Positions 1 to 9,228 of a stretch of DNA of 64,000 nt are shown in pieces. Source of the DNA: Tetrahymena elliotti 4EA. Its lineage: Eukaryota > Ciliophora > Oligohymenophorea > Hymenostomatida > Tetrahymenidae. The stretch lies in contig JH720311.1 in assembly GCA_000231825.2 (NCBI GenBank), positions 308,329 through 372,328 of the forward strand, in the 5' to 3' direction. Each line of letters starts with the position of its first letter. The first letter of the stretch is position 1. The position numbers and the translations under genes were made by a program. The notes beneath the pieces were generated by a model. The model was not told where the DNA came from. It saw only the letters and a program-made list of their open reading frames with translations, and did not search any database.

Positions 1-3000
1 ATATCATTTTAGTGATTTTCACTAGAATTGCTACTAATTACTGGCTGACTCTCAGATTAACTCAAAGAATTAGATTCATCATACTGTTAAAACTAAATCT
101 TTAAGTGTTTATACTCTTTGAGCAGATCATCTTTTATTTCATATTATTCGTCGTCATTATTGCCAAAATCAAAAACTTATTGACTATCTTTCACAAGATC
201 TAAATTTTCTTCTTCTCCTAAAGATCTTCTTTTTGCTTTATGATTTTAAGGATTATTGAAGAACTTAAGGCGTTTCATCAATGTTAAATATCTCTCGTTT
301 TAAATATCTTTTAATTTTTAATACCATTCAGGAAAAGCTTTAGAAATAATTTCAAAATCTTAAAAGCTCAACCTTCCGACTTTGCAAATTTTGCTATTTG
401 AAAAAGAAAATATTTATTTTAAAATATTTTTAACACAATGTGATAGATCTTACGAAGTTTTGACATAGGCTGGCTGTTTGATTCTGCTTGGAATGTTATT
501 TAATATACCTCCAAAGAAATCTCCTGTTTCTAATGACAACATTTTATATAACTCAAAATTATAACATTCAACTTAACCTTCTAAAATAATAAACACATCT
601 TTACACTCTTCTCCAGCTACTATAATAACCTCATTAGGCATAAATATTTCAAATGTCAAAAATCTAAAAATAGACAGCTTCACTTATTCATTTCTCCATT
701 TGGGTCCAATGTTAAAGAATATAGAGTATTTTATAAGTTTAGGATACATATACTCAATAATATCTGCTCTCAAATCAATAGGAAATTCTTTTAGAAATTT
801 ATTTTCATCCATTCCCATCATTGTTTCCCAAATATAACTAAAATAAATCTTTAAAAAATGAAAATTAAAATTTAGAAGGGACAAGAAAGAAGCTTGCTTA
901 CTTCTACAAGTGGCTTAAACTGCTTAAGATCCATTTTCTTGATAAAAGCTACAACTAATCTGTACCTCATGAGAAAATCTCTCTTTAAAGACGAAGAAAT
1001 TATTTTAATGAGAGAAGATATGCTAGCAAAGAAGCTTATTGAAAAGACAATTACGCAAAGGAAAATAATACAAGAATATATTTCTTCTCTGGTGTTGACT
1101 GCTGAAGAATCTCCTGTCGTTGTATGAGTCATTATTTAAAATGACCAACTTAATGCATTCAAATAGAGAGAAAAATCAGATATCTAAAAATCTTGAAGAA
1201 CTGCTTCGTTAACCTATGTCGTAGAGATTCTTACAAACCAGCTCTTTTTCCAATCTGTCTCTTGCTTACCAATAACAATCTATTTAAAGCAATAGTTTTA
1301 TTAATATTTTATTTGATTTTAATTAAATTTACCCATAAGCAAGCGTTCAAGTGGTTTAAGAAGGCAATAATCATAAATTTATTTATGATTTCAATGTAAA
1401 CTTGCTGATTTTAATCATAGTAGCGGATGGAATAATAAATATTATATATGTTTAAAACTCTGTTAAGAGACAGGACTATGAGAAAGAAATTATTTCTTGA
1501 CTCATCGACTGAGGTTAAATCAAAAAGTAAGCTAAAAGGTATGGCGACAAAAATATTAATTAACAATTTTTTCTAAAATACCTTTTTAACAGCTAGATAT
1601 TAGTCATAAATATCAATTATGAGTTTTCCCTGCTTCTTTTTCTTCATTTTTTTAAGCTCTAATTAAAAGTTGAAAAAAATTATATAGATTGACAAGATAT
1701 GAATACAGTTGAATAAATTCTAAAAATAGATGAATAATATGCATTTTAAGAGTAAAGAGCTTTTTAAAAAACAATAAAAAAGAATGCATGGAAGGAGAGT
1801 ACAGATTATTAATAAGCAAGCTATTTAAAATATTTTTTATAAAGAATTCACAAAAATTTTTTAATGATTTCTCTAAGTATTAATTGAAAGATTAAGAGGG
1901 TAGATAGATATTCAGGATTTTTGAGCAAGTAAAGAAAGCTTAAAAAATAATTATTTGGGATTAGTCGTAAATCCAAGCACCTATTATAAGCTTTCATTCA
2001 CTTTTATTTGACAAATATTTCCTCTCCTCTTTCAAAGAATAAATGGAAAATTGGAAATGAAAAAATATTAAAAATTACTTAATGAAAATCTTCTGAATTC
2101 TTGGAAAGTAAAGGAAATGAGTACAAGTGTGCTAAGTATTTCAATAATGAGAAGAGGTATATTTTATTTAAAACAAAAGAAGCTTTCAAATGCGATGTTG
2201 AGAGGAGTGATAAAACTACTATAAACAGATACTAATACCATGATAAAAGAATGTCTTTTTAGTATAAGAAAATTAAAGGATTTTTTGAAGCCATTTCCTG
2301 GAAAGGAGGTGTAAAATATCAGAGAAGATGTTTTTAAGTTGGTTTCCGATTTTCCTATTTTATGTACTTCCCCTTAAACGCTTGATAGTGAAGAGGAGTT
2401 ATCTAAATCAGATGAATCTTCTAAAATTCTATCTTCTTTAATTAATAAAGGCGAAATTTTATCTGATTGGTTCCTGTTATTATTTTTATTTTTTTTACTA
2501 TCTAGCTGCCCATTCTCCAAAACATTATCTTGATTAAAAACTTAAATTATCTCATCAACTGACTAACTTTTCCTTTTGATAAAGAATCTTTTGTTTTGGC
2601 TTTAAGAAATATTTTTCTTAAATATTGAGGGAGAATCGATTTCTCTTTTATCTTAAATAGATAGTTCCTTATCCTTTGACTGCTTTAAAATAACTTCTAA
2701 TTAACTTTCATAATTATCACTGCTAAAAGAATGATTTCTTATTGATTACTATTAGTTAGGTTCTTCATCAGATTTTCTGCATGATTATTAATCCAAACAT
2801 CTCTGTTCAGATTAAATTATTTTAACATTATATTCCTCATTTTTTTTGTAATCTTGATGACATAATTCCTTATTATCATTGAATAATTAAGATTAAATTG
2901 CTTTCTTACCTCCATTGTTAATCTTATAATGATTGATGCAACTCTCAATGGTTTATTAATTAACATCAAATTTACTTTCTTCATTTAATCCTTACAAACG

Positions 3001-6000
3001 TTATGTCACCAATTACAATTTATTCTATTCATCGCAGTCCTATTCAGAATTTTCAACTTCATGATTTTCCTTTCTTTATGACGATTAATCTCCATACCTC
3101 TTTCTCTAATTTTCATTTTTATCAATCAAATTAATCTTCCTCTGAGAATTCATATTTTGCTCCTAAAATCTCAATTACTCCTAATCACTAATTTAGTTAT
3201 CATTCTTTTAAATAATTATTTGTGTTGTCTTTGATTAAGACTCTTCAGCATTAACCTAATTTGTAATACTTTTTGATTAATCTCTAATAATACTATCTTT
3301 CAAATCAAGACTATAATCATCCTAGATATTCTATTAATTATCTCTCTTCCGAGCCATAGTTGTTTTCTATTTTTTTCTTTTCTAGATAAATACATTTTCA
3401 TCTTAATCCTAATTATAATCAGCCATATTATAATCATCTTCTTTTTTATTTTTATTATTACCGTTTGCATCATCATCATCATCATCATGGTTGTTGTTGA
3501 TGCAGCTATTTTTTATTTGTGATTAAGTTTTATCTTAGTCTTGCTCATTAAATATGTTTTTCTTTGAATCTCTTGTGATCAAAAGCTAACTTTATTATTT
3601 TTCATATTAATGCTAAACCGATGAAGACATATGTTAATAAGTCTTTAATTATATTTCATTTTCATTCTCTACATCTTCTTAATCTTTTTCTTAACCAAAT
3701 TATTAATTGCTTTAACCATTTATATTTTCAGTATTTTAATCACTTTTTTTCTTATTTAAATTGAGTGAATCTATTTAGTCTTCAAGAGATGCTATGTTAT
3801 TTTCTTTTTGAGTAGATGATTGAAGGACTAACAAATTTTATTTGGATTATTAAGATAATTAATTTTAATCACCAAATATTTTCTTATTATTTTCATCACT
3901 AAAAATATTTTAATCTTACTGCTAATAGGGAGAAATAATTTCATCCTGATTTGTACCTTAATTTTTATTCTTTGAAAAGTAATTTCTTTTCTAATCTGGT
4001 TTTCTTAAAAAAATTGATTTTTAGTCTTCATTCTTTTTTGATTTAACACTCGGATTCATTTTCTTATCTTCTTCTAATGAACTATCATTTTCTTATTTAA
4101 GCTTTAAACTCTTATGAGATCTCTACTTCATTTTCTCTTTTGTGTTCAATTTCCTTTAATCAGCCAACTATTAAATGATCTAAAAAATTTCAGGATACAT
4201 ATTACAAACATACTTAAAATCTTTGATATCCAAACTCGCTAAATGTAAGTTGGTCTTAGCTACAACTGAAGCCCCTCTGACATTTATTTTCAAATCTATA
4301 ATAGCCATTTCACCAAAATAGTCTCCCTCCTTAAGCTAAGCCAATATAATGGGTGGTTTTATATAAAATTCATCCTCTATCATAACAGTTGCTTAACCCT
4401 CAATAATAAAGTACATCTCTGTAGCGATTTCTCCTTTTTTAAACACATATTCATCTTTTGGAATAATTTTTTATTTCATCATCCTCATCAAAGACAAAAC
4501 CACTCCTGAATCTTTAGCTTGGTTTGTTTGGATCTTCTACAGGACACTAAATTTAATTATCGTAAAAGCTTTAAAATATTTCTATTAAAACAGCATATTT
4601 AGCGCTTTGAATAAAAAAGTTAAATTATTTTTATTTGCATCATTAAATACTTATTATTTTAGTTTCTTTTAAAAAAAAAAATATATAAATTAAGAAATAA
4701 GTTGATTAGCTCGAATAAAAAATTGCATGAATAATTGTTTCATTTTTTTTATTTAAATTTTTAAGTAGAATTCGTTTTACAAATTATTTCACCAACTGAC
4801 TGACTGCTCTTTGATAAGTTGTAGTCGATCTAGTCAGTTGATTTATTTTATCTAAAAAATAGAGCTTTAATTATCAGTCATACATGACAGATAGTTTGTT
4901 CATCAAAAAAAAAATGAATTTTTTATGCAAATTTTTTTAGTTTAACTTTAATCTTCACCAGAAATTCATAATTAGATTTTTTCTTTGGTTTGATTTCATT
5001 AAGCTTCTCAAAAAAGTTTAATGAAAAGAAAAAAAATTGGATTTAAAATTAATAGAACAATAATTACTTTTAGAAAAGCTGCAGAATAATTTCATTTTAG
5101 ACTGTGTTTGGAAGTTCAGATAAAATTTCTTCATCATTAATTCCTTTGAATTTTATGTTTTGAAAATCATAAAATTTATAAATTCTGTTGCTAATTTGGT
5201 GAGGGAATTTCTTGAAATTAAGGAAGCCTCTTATTGATTCTATTTTAGATTTAGCTTCATTAGACAATGTTTTATTCATTTTCTCTGAATTAAGAGCTTG
5301 GGCAATAAAAAAAATTGTAATAATTCTGGAACAAAGTAAAACTAAAGTTTGGACACATCTTTCGACTTGAGACATTCCTTAGATTGTACCAAAGCACCCT
5401 TATGAAGTGAGATTCAAGGAATAATACAAGAATTCAATATATTTAACCCAGAATGACTTTAAATATTATAAAAATAAATGTTTTTTTAGAAATAGAGTAG
5501 AAAATTTACTTATTCAGCAAGAGGAGTTCTTGAAGGAATAGCTTGAGAATCAAAACGGGTAAATAAATTATGAGAAACTCTTCCTAATTCATTGACAGCA
5601 ATTATATAGAAAAGGCAAGCACAGAGATGACTAATATATGCCATAACGAGAAAAAATTTAAGAAATAGAAATGCTTTCTCAAATTATACTCTACTATATA
5701 AAGAATTATAAAATTGACTTACTCTATAGATTCTAGCGAGTCTTAACAATCTTGTTATTCTGCATAAAATAGGATGAACATGAAGTAAAGAGAGCATTAC
5801 ATCTAACGGAAATGTTGATAGCATATCTACTATGAACAAATTTTTTTTAAAGTATTTATCTACTGCTCTTTTGTAACTAAAATTATTTTAATTACTTTAT
5901 GACTTATTTGTATCAACAAAATCTTTATTAGAATGTTTATTTTTAACTTATGAATTCAATTATTTCTTTGCTTAATCAGCATTTTATGAAGGCGCTTCTA

Positions 6001-9000
6001 TAGATTTGTATTAATTAGTTTAAATAAAGCTTTTTTAATATCCTTTTTCTTTCTCATTTAAAGAAGAAGTGTTAGCGAAAAAAATAATATCCAAAAAGTA
6101 TAAAGTAAAACTTAAATATTCAAATGTAATGTATCCTCCTTCAAGATCTACTGAATAAGCTATTGAAAGAGGAACATACATTAAATTATATGCAAGCACA
6201 AAAAACATTATGCCTTTCCATACATTCTAAAATGATCTCTTATTTGCTATATTATAAATCACGTTAAATGCTCCTTATCTCTTCTTATTAGCAATCTCTA
6301 ATCTTTCCAATTAATTTGTTTGCTATTTTTGTTAATTAAAATAATCTGCGTTTCCCTGATTCTTTTCAATATCATTTAAATTGTTGTTGTTGTTGTTGTT
6401 GTTATTGCTATTATTTGGTATAGCGTTATCAGAGTTTTATAACAAAGGTTTACTGTTTAGTGTATGTTCTCCCATTACTTTATTATTGTTATTGATATTA
6501 CTATTAATGTTTTCGTGCATTGATAAGTCAACAATTTATTGTTTATTATTTATATTGACATTAATTTATTATTTATTGACATTCTCAATTTAAATTACAT
6601 TTTATTCTTAGCTGTTATGATTTTTATTATTATGATTATTTTTAATAAATAAGCTCACTCCAGAAATATCATAACTATCTTCTCTTTTTTTCTCTTCAAA
6701 CTCAACTTTTTCAATTATTTTGTCTGAAGGTAAATCTGAAGCTTTTGTAGTAAGCAGCCTTTATTTGCTTACTTTTATTAAATGATTCTTTTAATCAGGA
6801 AACTATTGCATAATTAAATTAAAATGTTCTTTATTAAGGCACATGAAGATGCAATCTTCAATGGCTTATACAATACATGTCCTTTTTCCTGTAATTAATA
6901 AGCCTATTTCTCCAAAATAAGAACCTTCTTCTTATATAGCAATTACCCTAGAGTTGCATTCTGTAATGATTTATACCTTTCCCTTCTTGATAAAATACAT
7001 TTCATTTGCTATTTCACCATACCAAATAACTATATCTCCCTTCATACAAATCTTAGGATAAAAATATTTCATAGTCTCAAGAATAAAATCTGGAGATCCT
7101 AAATTAAGGAGCTTGACATTCTTTATGAGGTCCTAATTTAAATGCAGTTTCAATTCAACCTAAAGACTCATGGGAAGTTAAATTATGTCTAATTAGTTTT
7201 TATCTTTTAAGTTAATTTATTAAAAAAATAAACAAAATAATTATATTATCTTGAGCATTAATATATTTTTCAGCATTATTTTTATTTAATTCAGTAAAAA
7301 AGATGAAATAAAAAATTAGATTTTTGAATGGAAAAAATCTTTTAGTTATAGATTCAAATCTACACTTATTTATGTCTGGATGTTTAGAAATAGATATTAA
7401 AAAAACTTATCTTCCTAATAATCGTGCTTGTTAGTTTGTCAATGATAGTGAATTAATTAATTTAATAAACAAATAAAATTTAACGTAAAACAGTTAATTT
7501 TTGGATGGAAGGGAATAATAAAATTGAAATTATGAATAAAAATCAAATAAATAAGAGTGAAATTAATTAAAGTCTCTAAAATAAAAAAATTAAAGCATCG
7601 ATAATTATTTAATAATAAATTTACAATCATTTTTGCTCTATAGAATTCTATTAAAATAATTGTTGATGTTCTTAAAAATCATTCCTTTTAGGTTTTTATA
7701 TCTACAAAATTTTCTCGTTTTCTCTTGGCTGTTTCTATTTTTTTTAAAATAATATTTATTCATTAATTCTCAACATTTATTTATTTCAAATATTTAAAAA
7801 AAAAAACCGAAAATACTTTCTTAAATATTTAATTTATTTTTATAAAAATATTTCATGCAACTTAATGAATAAAGTTTTTATCAAGCTAGTTCTACTGCGT
7901 AGATTTTCTTTATACCTTTTTTAATTTTTATAGAATATGTATAGCAAAGTATTTTGTTGAAACTAATGTATAACAAGAGGATTGGTAGATATATTTAGAT
8001 AGATCTTAGTGGGGAAATTGATTAAGTAAGATACATAGGGAGGACTTTTTGGAAAGTGTTAAATTAATTTGTATGGAAAGTAGATGTATCTAGATAATTT
8101 ACCTTTATTTGTATTCTTAAAAATTAGAGTAGTAAAGTAATGTGTCGAAATTAGCATAGATTGTACCTAAGACAAATGTGCCTACACCCATCATTAATAC
8201 CGAGAGAGTAATTTCCATTTTAGTACCTGGAACGACTTCATTAGTTGAATTACCACTAATTACTTCAATGGCATATTAAATAGATAAAATATATCTGTTG
8301 GCGATGTTATAATCTCCACTTTCGTCTAAATTTTAAAAATAATAACCATCAATAGCTTATGTGGTTTTTTCTATTTTATTAACAAAAGTCCAAGAGCATG
8401 CTATGTAGTGTATTAACATGAAAAACATTAAACAGGTTTTAATAAATTTAATATAAATGATTTTCCTGAATTATGTATAGATAAAGATAAACTCAAGTTT
8501 CTAAAAGAAATTCCATAGGTCCAAGACCTTAATGATATTTAAGGCAAATAGATAACTGAGATAGTCTTCAAGTTATAAGTTTTATTCATTAATAATATTT
8601 GTGTTGGTCTTGATGATCTTCAAAATAGTTGCTTAGGGAATAGCAGATATGACATATAATACATTAAATAAGGTTTGTACAGTAACTTCATTCAGTATGA
8701 AATTAGTAAAAAAGAATTTATTTTTCCTTGCATACTTTGAAAAAGCGATTCTGAGAATAATATCAACAATTACAAACATTTCAATAACTATTTCAATCGA
8801 CAAGTATGGTCCACTTGGATATCCCAAATTACTCATCCAAAAAACTGATGACAGTAGCATATAAAGATGAAAAATGTTAATCAAAAGACACCAATAAAAT
8901 GAAAAGGTGTTAAAATAATTTAATATGTTTTTTGTCTGATTCCTCTCAATTTGCATCGAAATATGTTCATCTATTTTTATTAAAAAATCTCATTTTTATT

Positions 9001-9228
9001 TATTCACTTGCTTCAAATCTAATTAATTATAATCTCTATTTTGTCTAAATTAATTGTTGATGTAATTAGCATTTATCTTTCAAATAAAAACATACCTAAA
9101 CCACTAAAACCGCTGTCCGTACGAGCATCTTAGACGATAGAGAGCCTAGTTTTTAATGTTTTCTAGAATCTCCCATCTTTTCTTTGCTTAGTTTTCTTGT
9201 TGTAGTTGAAATTAAAAACCTCAATCAT
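1..9228 (-). CDS. Giant tandem-repeat cyclic-nucleotide-gated channel (at least 3 channel/CNBD repeats), 3' end outside window
   Basis: Plasma- or ciliary-membrane cation channel expected to be gated by cAMP or cGMP. Exons (minus): 9228-9096, 8988-8103, 7734-7625, 7203-5510, 5456-5068, 4546-2079, 1658-1333, 1279-902, 848-<1. Every splice phase closes and no TGA occurs in frame. Repeat 1: S1 near residue 72, C-linker in the 7734-7625 exon, CNBD about 415-530. Repeat 2: TM block about 694-970, with an S4 bearing regularly spaced arginines (CRITRLLRLARIYR), CNBD about 1085-1205 with motif KKGEIATEMYFIIEG. An acidic N/Q-rich linker of about 600 residues, including six consecutive Asp, runs uninterrupted into S1 of repeat 3 (about 1823). 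Repeat 3 has the helix motif HLNACLW, a pore near 2048 and a CNBD about 2195-2310. The start is ATG 9228, which opens exon 1. Single-chain tandem CNG repeats are known from CNGK-type channels. The frame is open at base 1, so a fourth repeat may follow. Ligand and ion selectivity are not shown. Confidence 0.9.

What the first reader, a model, noticed from the sequence alone, without database searches (positions are those of the whole stretch)
1..9228. Single-chain channel with three (perhaps four) tandem CNG repeats
Seen: nine phase-consistent exons join three complete six-helix + C-linker + CNBD modules in one TGA-free frame, which is still open at base 1. The 2,468-bp exon runs from CNBD 2 through the linker into S1 of repeat 3, so repeats 2 and 3 cannot be separate genes. 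Known: CNGK-type channels, first described from sea-urchin sperm, carry four CNG repeats in one polypeptide. Inference: this is a ciliate counterpart, and the fourth repeat lies beyond the window.
Basis: partly seen in the sequence, partly recalled or inferred. Interest (0 to 1): 0.9.

Follow-up and report, generated by a model that had tools for sequence, protein, structure and literature searches.

The report
Four-repeat cyclic-nucleotide-binding channel in Tetrahymena
A Tetrahymena gene encodes one giant membrane protein made of four linked channel units, each with a cyclic-nucleotide-binding domain, resembling the animal sperm channel CNGK in layout but with four different, non-standard pore filters.

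Summary
The gene runs on the minus strand from window base 9228 to C19:304207, with 15 exons, 14 GT-AG introns and 3,352 aa. It is collinear and about 66% identical with annotated proteins of T. thermophila, T. utriculariae and T. malaccensis. Three more four-repeat genes lie in tandem on contig C97 of the same genome, and eight unnamed relatives of 2,025-2,136 aa carry the same four repeats. In the tree each repeat number forms its own clade, so the layout is ancestral to this family. It looks like a single-chain, pseudo-tetrameric CNBD channel but fails a CNGK feature: the K+ filter G[YF]G is present in 0 of 64 repeats of 16 proteins, against 8 of 9 single-repeat channel models of the same genome. 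Each repeat has its own filter. CNBD 1 keeps its ligand-contact Glu and Arg in 16 of 16 proteins; CNBD 3 lost both in all 8 Tetrahymena copies. Shared ancestry with CNGK could not be tested: no CNGK sequence was retrieved. Conduction and ligand are inferred.

The parts
9096..9228 (-). exon 1, start ATG at 9228; N-terminus
   Evidence: gene model; first residues aligned to P0001-P0003
8103..8970 (-). exon 2: repeat 1 S1-S6
   Evidence: predicted fold of 288 aa (pLDDT 71) matches CNBD-type channels in the PDB
8240..8248 (-). repeat 1 filter triple S-T-N in place of G-Y-G
7625..7734 (-). exon 3 (110 bp): C-linker of repeat 1
   Evidence: exon of the same length in two of three C97 paralogues
5510..7203 (-). 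exon 4: end of C-linker 1, CNBD 1, linker, S1-S5 of repeat 2 (joins repeats 1 and 2 without an intron)
6803..7045 (-). CNBD 1 (cNMP_binding), Glu and Arg of the phosphate-binding cassette kept
   Evidence: Pfam E 6.9e-16
5068..5456 (-). exon 5: pore, S6 and C-linker of repeat 2
5388..5396 (-). repeat 2 filter triple C-F-G
2079..4546 (-). exon 6 (2,468 bp): CNBD 2, linker of about 610 aa, S1-S2 of repeat 3 (joins repeats 2 and 3 without an intron)
4201..4464 (-). CNBD 2
   Evidence: Pfam E 4.2e-13
1333..1658 (-). exon 7: repeat 3 S3-S5
902..1279 (-). exon 8: end of S5, pore, S6 and start of C-linker of repeat 3
   Evidence: Ion_trans E 1.4e-6 in the frame 818-1390
1112..1120 (-). repeat 3 filter triple T-T-G
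454..848 (-). exon 9: C-linker and first part of CNBD 3 (Glu and Arg of the ligand cassette replaced by G and Q)
   Evidence: Pfam E 1.5e-4
1..393 (-). exon 10, in-window part: end of CNBD 3 and start of the repeat 3-4 linker; the exon goes on to -444 (C19:307884)
   Evidence: Left of the window: exons 11-15 at C19:306093-307006, 305875-306019, 305408-305807, 304655-305278, 304207-304583 carry repeat 4 and the C-terminus

Best explanation
The locus encodes one 3,352-aa polypeptide with four 6TM + C-linker + CNBD repeats: a single-chain, pseudo-tetrameric channel of the cyclic-nucleotide-binding-domain (CNBD) superfamily, in a four-repeat family found in Tetrahymena and in unnamed relatives. 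Shown by sequence: the four repeats in one coding frame, orthologues in three named Tetrahymena species, three paralogues in this genome, and repeat-specific filters without G[YF]G. Inferred: the four repeats fold round one pore whose filter is asymmetric and not of the standard K+ type, so it is probably a weakly selective cation (perhaps Ca2+/Na+) pore. Cyclic nucleotide binding, at CNBD 1 and in this paralogue also at CNBDs 2 and 4, opens it. Repeat 2 carries the most regular S4 and supplies any voltage dependence; CNBD 3 is structural.
For: Complete gene model, 15 exons and 14 GT-AG introns, ending in the same residues as the orthologues. T. thermophila 3,389 aa, T. utriculariae 3,380 aa and T. 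malaccensis 3,398 aa homologues; four cNMP_binding stretches in both of the two scanned. Four repeat regions in each of the 16 proteins counted as family members (some stretches partial or split). In the C97 paralogue at 230514-241629, repeats 3 and 4 are separated only by a 67-bp GT-AG intron of the model, too short to be intergenic. The tree has four repeat-number clades, 100/99 to 100/100, with the same inner order. Filters and ligand residues. The repeat 1 fold matches AKT1, GORK, HCN and CNG chains; repeat 2 is closest by sequence to CNGA3/CNGA1 in the PDB.
Against: No transcript or protein data were seen. The repeat 3-4 join in this gene rests on an 877-bp, 20% GC intron, supported only by orthologue annotation and the paralogue models. 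The unconstrained gene finder broke repeat 1, and Pfam saw no Ion_trans in the repeat 1 and 2 frames of this gene. Conduction, selectivity and ligand are inferred from motifs. The S4 count is no clear signal: the six single-repeat Tetrahymena channels counted also have only 2-5 K/R there. The organisms of the eight full-length unnamed relatives are unknown. The repeat 1 model is of modest confidence (pLDDT 71; TM-score to the query at most 0.58, rmsd 7-12). One single-repeat Tetrahymena channel model (L062) also lacks G[YF]G, so loss of that motif is not unique to the four-repeat family.
Confidence: 0.6

Rival explanations
1. A true CNGK orthologue: a K+-selective, cGMP-gated four-repeat channel inherited from a common ancestor with the animal and choanoflagellate CNGK.
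For: Same count and order of 6TM-CNBD repeats. In the best tree repeats 1 and 3 fall together, as reported for CNGK, but with support of only 57/37. The unnamed relatives have short, even linkers (P0004: 49, 48, 46 aa), as CNGK does.
Against: G[YF]G in 0 of 64 repeats, whereas CNGK pores carry GYG or GFG (PMC4749565, passages). CNBD 3, the gating site of sea-urchin CNGK, has lost Glu and Arg here. PMC7576140 describes CNGK as a clade of metazoans and choanoflagellates (passages).
Confidence: 0.12
2. A non-conducting pseudochannel: a four-CNBD membrane sensor or scaffold whose pores have decayed, signalling through CNBD 1.
For: No canonical filter in any of the 64 repeats; very long charged or N/Q-rich linkers and tail; the 60-aa block with most of CNBD 1 has 98% of columns identical in four species, the highest of the chain.
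Against: The filters are conserved per repeat between species (GYP in repeat 4 of all 8 Tetrahymena copies), and the 60-aa blocks with S5-pore-S6 have 0.68-0.87 identical columns, which decay would not give.
Confidence: 0.2
3. Adjacent separate genes joined by gene prediction (three-repeat plus one-repeat, or four single channels).
For: Low-GC gap of 877 bp between repeats 3 and 4; my gene finder split the gene at 7852-7172; the orthologue models are predictions as well.
Against: Exons 4 and 6 each run from one CNBD into the next repeat. Three orthologue models agree end to end. In the three C97 paralogues the repeat 3-4 linker is interrupted by a phase-0 intron of only 174, 147 and 67 bp. Eight full-length homologues of 2,025-2,136 aa hold all four repeats.
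Confidence: 0.03

Closest known systems
CNGK (cyclic-nucleotide-gated K+ channel of animal sperm and choanoflagellates)
   Same: One polypeptide with four 6TM + C-linker + CNBD repeats
   Different: CNGK has GYG/GFG filters, near-identical repeats and short equal linkers (PMC4749565, PMC6259924, passages). Here there are four different non-GYG filters, linkers of about 156, 610 and 278 aa, and a degenerate CNBD 3
[quoted passage not shown]
   Same: Tandem 6TM-CNBD repeats in an SAR lineage
   Different: Two repeats rather than four; PMC7576140 states that no tandem channels were identified in ciliates
Single-repeat CNBD channels of the same genome (nine modelled, six used in the tree)
   Same: 6TM + C-linker + CNBD, same genome
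   Different: One repeat; GYG in 6 of 6 in the alignment and in 8 of 9 models as printed (L062 has G-N-Q); the six form a separate clade, 100/99
CNGA1/CNGA3 vertebrate CNG channels
   Same: Best PDB sequence match of repeat 2 (CNGA3, E 8e-29)
   Different: Tetramers of separate subunits (recalled)
Four-domain Cav/Nav/NALCN channels
   Same: Four 6TM repeats, asymmetric pore
   Different: No CNBD or C-linker; a different superfamily branch (recalled)

Membership tests
CNGK | four 6TM-CNBD repeats in one polypeptide | tested here: met
   gene model and profile search; orthologues
CNGK | canonical GYG or GFG filter in the pore (PMC4749565) | tested here: not met
   0 of 4 repeats here; 0 of 64 in 16 family members. 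Control: 6 of 6 single-repeat Tetrahymena channels in the same alignment; 8 of 9 if the three models left out of the alignment are counted by eye
CNGK | pseudo-symmetry with equally short linkers (PMC6259924) | tested here: not met
   Linkers about 156, 610 and 278 aa by the boundaries set. The unnamed relatives do have short ones (P0004: 49, 48 and 46 aa)
CNGK | repeat 1 closest to 3, repeat 2 closest to 4 (PMC7576140) | tested here: inconclusive
   r1+r3 support 57/37; r2+r4 not in the best tree, AU p 0.24
CNGK | repeats group with metazoan and choanoflagellate CNGK | not tested
   no hit named CNGK in the three protein searches
CNGK | K+ selectivity and cGMP (or pH) gating | not testable with these tools
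   needs electrophysiology
CNBD-channel superfamily (CNG/HCN/KCNH/AKT) | 6TM domain followed by C-linker and CNBD | tested here: met
   Pfam; PDB sequence match; fold match of repeat 1
two-repeat tandem CNBD channels | two 6TM-CNBD repeats | tested here: not met
   four repeats

The most novel reading that the evidence does not exclude
A ciliate family of single-chain four-repeat CNBD channels that arose separately from CNGK and from Cav/Nav. Its four filters have each settled on a conserved non-GYG signature (C97 type: SFG or CFG / AYG or SYG / GVG / GYP), making one asymmetric, non-K+ pore, while ligand gating has been reduced stepwise (four intact CNBDs, then 1+2+4, then CNBD 1 alone) to the first domain.
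Probability: 0.45. Interest if true: 0.75.

Novelty: new variant of a known kind. Interest (0 to 1): 0.6.

Why it matters
The survey whose passages I read (PMC7576140) reported no tandem CNBD channels in ciliates, and a review (PMC6259924, passages) held that CNGK repeats show no obvious specialisation, unlike Cav/Nav repeats. This family shows four-repeat CNBD channels outside animals and choanoflagellates with strong repeat-by-repeat specialisation of filter and ligand site. Because T. thermophila is genetically tractable (recalled), it would let one ask directly what one intact CNBD does in a fixed four-repeat pore, and whether an asymmetric filter built from broken GYG motifs conducts.

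Tried and rejected
Euplotid code (table 10) gave no long frame on the coding strand and was dropped for table 6. The unconstrained gene finder split the gene at 7852-7172, and the forced model put spurious small exons into several introns and a TGA across a junction; orthologues corrected these. The three-repeat reading was rejected: the frame open at base 1 has its next TGA only at -603, after the donor at -445, and a fourth repeat follows. Scans of viral and prokaryote genome collections for DNA of the unnamed relatives (queries P0007 and P0012) found no relative, so I could not see their reading frames in DNA, their genetic code or their organisms. P0015 was searched in the hope that it was CNGK; besides itself it brought only P0020 (Saprolegnia), P0021 and P0022. 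Order among the four repeats is unresolved. Long-branch outgroups (P0015, P0020, P0021, P0016) are placed unreliably, by the tree program's own warning.

Rows dropped: of ten regions fetched for single-repeat channels, six models entered the tree and the filter count; L061, L062 and L064 (channels with partial or weak profile matches) and L063 (CNBDs without a channel) were left out. L061 and L064 show GYG as printed, L062 shows G-N-Q. The tree used 9 of the 16 four-repeat proteins; P0009 (truncated in repeat 4) was left out of all counts.

Literature searches behind the statement that I found no description of this family in print. They cover open-licence PMC only. Papers: passages only of PMC7576140, PMC4749565, PMC6259924, PMC10120453, PMC3283738 and PMC6564038; all others seen as search listings.

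Full report
Check of the observation. The window is C19:308329-372328 of an unnamed 89.95-Mb genome in 134 contigs. Pfam finds a CNBD in each of the three modules (the third below its cut-off) and Ion_trans in repeat 3, but none in the repeat 1 and 2 frames. Orthologues add one correction: a 60-nt in-frame intron at 453-394, so ten exons rather than nine touch the window.

The fourth repeat. I fetched 20 kb to the left. The frame runs on to a donor at -445, and an 877-bp intron leads to a fourth S1-S6 + C-linker + CNBD and a TGA at C19:304207. The final model has 15 exons, 14 GT-AG introns and 3,352 aa, with one stop at its end. A protein search with a region-restricted query returned T. thermophila (3,389 aa, named only 'cation channel family protein'), T. 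utriculariae (3,380 aa) and T. malaccensis (3,398 aa) at 61-63% identity to the region searched. Over the whole chain this protein is 66% identical to each of the three, which are 82% identical to each other, so the organism is probably a Tetrahymena outside that trio; the genome size lies within the 84.9-114.8 Mb that PMC6564038 gives for ten Tetrahymena species (passages). Pfam sees four CNBDs in both orthologues scanned, with three (P0001) and four (P0002) Ion_trans stretches.

Is it one chain? Exon 4 runs from CNBD 1 into repeat 2 and exon 6 from CNBD 2 into repeat 3, so only the repeat 3-4 join depends on an intron. My unconstrained gene finder joined repeats 3 and 4, with spurious small exons in the intron, but broke repeat 1. 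Independent support comes from contig C97 of the same genome, where three tandem genes (205618-217725, 218630-229530, 230514-241629; 3,417, 3,057 and 3,127 aa by my models) each hold four repeats. There the repeat 3-4 linker is interrupted by a phase-0 GT-AG intron of 174, 147 and 67 bp; 67 bp is too short for an intergenic space. A second protein search brought eight full-length relatives of 2,025-2,136 aa without organism names (P0004, P0006-P0008, P0010-P0013), one truncated one (P0009) and a T. malaccensis paralogue (P0014, 3,045 aa). Four repeats are found in each of the eight and in P0014. Pfam counted four CNBDs and four Ion_trans in the three of the eight that were scanned, and three CNBDs and four Ion_trans in P0014. 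I could not see the DNA of the unnamed ones. Two bear names given by JGI; that this implies uninterrupted frames in the standard code is my inference.

Evolution of the repeats. A tree of 57 repeats used 9 of the 16 four-repeat family members (36 repeats), three other four-repeat proteins, one two-repeat oomycete protein, one KCNH and six single-repeat channels that I modelled from the same genome. Repeats 1, 2, 3 and 4 each form their own clade (100/99, 100/99, 100/100, 100/100). Inside each the order is the same: the unnamed lineage against Tetrahymena, then C19 type against C97 type. The four-repeat layout is therefore older than all these splits and has been inherited as a unit. The six single-repeat channels form a separate clade (100/99). 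The relation among repeats 1-4 is unresolved: all four together 65/12; 1+3 57/37; 2+4 AU p 0.24; 1+2 AU p 0.405. The drawing root (midpoint) puts repeat 4 with the outgroups, weakly (71/92). A shared or separate origin with CNGK could not be tested.

Pore. At the GYG position none of 64 repeats (16 proteins) has G[YF]G; all six single-repeat channels in the alignment do. Of the three further single-repeat models left out of the alignment, two show GYG and one (L062) G-N-Q. Each repeat of the family has its own pattern. Repeat 1: STN (C19 type), SFG or CFG (C97 type), various in the unnamed group. Repeat 2: CFG or SFG (C19 type), AYG or SYG (C97 type), SYG, SFG, SYN or TYN (unnamed). Repeat 3: TTG (C19 type), GVG (C97 type), xLG or xQG (unnamed). 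Repeat 4: GYP in all 8 Tetrahymena copies, GYS, GFS, GHT or GNT (unnamed). In the C97 type each repeat keeps two of the three canonical letters: repeats 1 and 2 lose the first, repeat 3 the second, repeat 4 the third. Acidic residues follow the filter in repeats 1 and 3 of the C19 type but not in 2 and 4. I infer a weakly selective cation pore; this is not shown.

Ligand sites. The Glu and Arg of the phosphate-binding cassette (their role is recalled; PMC4749565 also calls such an Arg crucial) are both present in CNBD 1 of 16 of 16 proteins. In the C19 type (4 of 4) CNBDs 1, 2 and 4 keep both and CNBD 3 has lost both. In the C97 type (4 of 4, counting P0014) only CNBD 1 keeps both. In the unnamed group all four keep both in 7 of 8; in P0007 CNBD 3 has Lys for Arg. 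Sea-urchin CNGK is gated through its third CNBD (PMC4749565, passages), so this family reduces ligand sites towards a different repeat.

Voltage sensor. By alignment with the repeat 2 S4, K/R counts in this protein are 2, 5, 1 and 4 for repeats 1-4. The six single-repeat channels show 2-5 and the KCNH 7, so low counts alone mean little.

Structure. The first six-helix unit (288 aa) was predicted with 13 sequences at mean pLDDT 71.3 and pTM 0.69. The 50 PDB matches listed (of 276 with E up to 10) are CNBD-type channels (AKT1, AKT1-AtKC1, GORK, SKOR, HCN, hERG, CNGA), with TM-scores to the query up to 0.58, rmsd 7-12, and five matches at E 0.001 or better. By sequence, repeat 2 is closest to CNGA3 (E 8e-29) and a whole unnamed relative, P0007, to SthK-type chains (E 1e-35).

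Comparison with what is known. CNGK is described as four near-identical repeats with short equal linkers, GYG/GFG filters and no obvious specialisation (PMC4749565 and PMC6259924, passages). PMC7576140 (passages) reports CNGK in metazoans and choanoflagellates, two-repeat CNBD channels in oomycetes and dinoflagellates, and states that no tandem channels were identified in ciliates. The present family shares the layout of CNGK but fails the filter test and, in this protein, the linker test. It looks like a CNGK-style pseudo-tetramer; it should not be filed as CNGK.

Verdict. The better description is a four-repeat CNBD channel family of Tetrahymena and unnamed relatives, with an asymmetric non-GYG filter and a ligand site conserved in repeat 1.

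Noticed in passing
C97:205618-241629 (loci L049-L053): Three tandem four-repeat CNBD channel genes of about 3,060-3,420 aa, a second subfamily of the same kind (T. malaccensis relative P0014).
   Followed up: yes
C95:203056-245619, C23:1126974-1135875, C2:2480149-2487659, C70:178205-203173, C39:329104-339731: Dense clusters of Ion_trans matches (best E 2e-46) that may be four-domain Cav/Nav-type genes or channel gene arrays.
   Followed up: no
protein P0020 (Saprolegnia diclina, 2,528 aa); also P0015 and P0021: Four 6TM-CNBD repeats by profile search, whereas the survey PMC7576140 describes two-repeat CNBD tandem channels in oomycetes. By eye the filters differ between repeats here too.
   Followed up: partly
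contigs C12, C18, C37, C34, C2 and others of the window's genome: Arrays of CNBD matches that are single-repeat channel genes where modelled; several models carry a Cys/His-rich motif (CxxC...H...C) after the CNBD, and one (L062) has G-N-Q in place of GYG.
   Followed up: partly
PDB 9ya0, Toxoplasma chain TGME49_219070 (2,736 aa): A very long apicomplexan protein with three CNBD-like stretches matching P0007 (one with repeat 2); whether it has channel domains was not checked.
   Followed up: no
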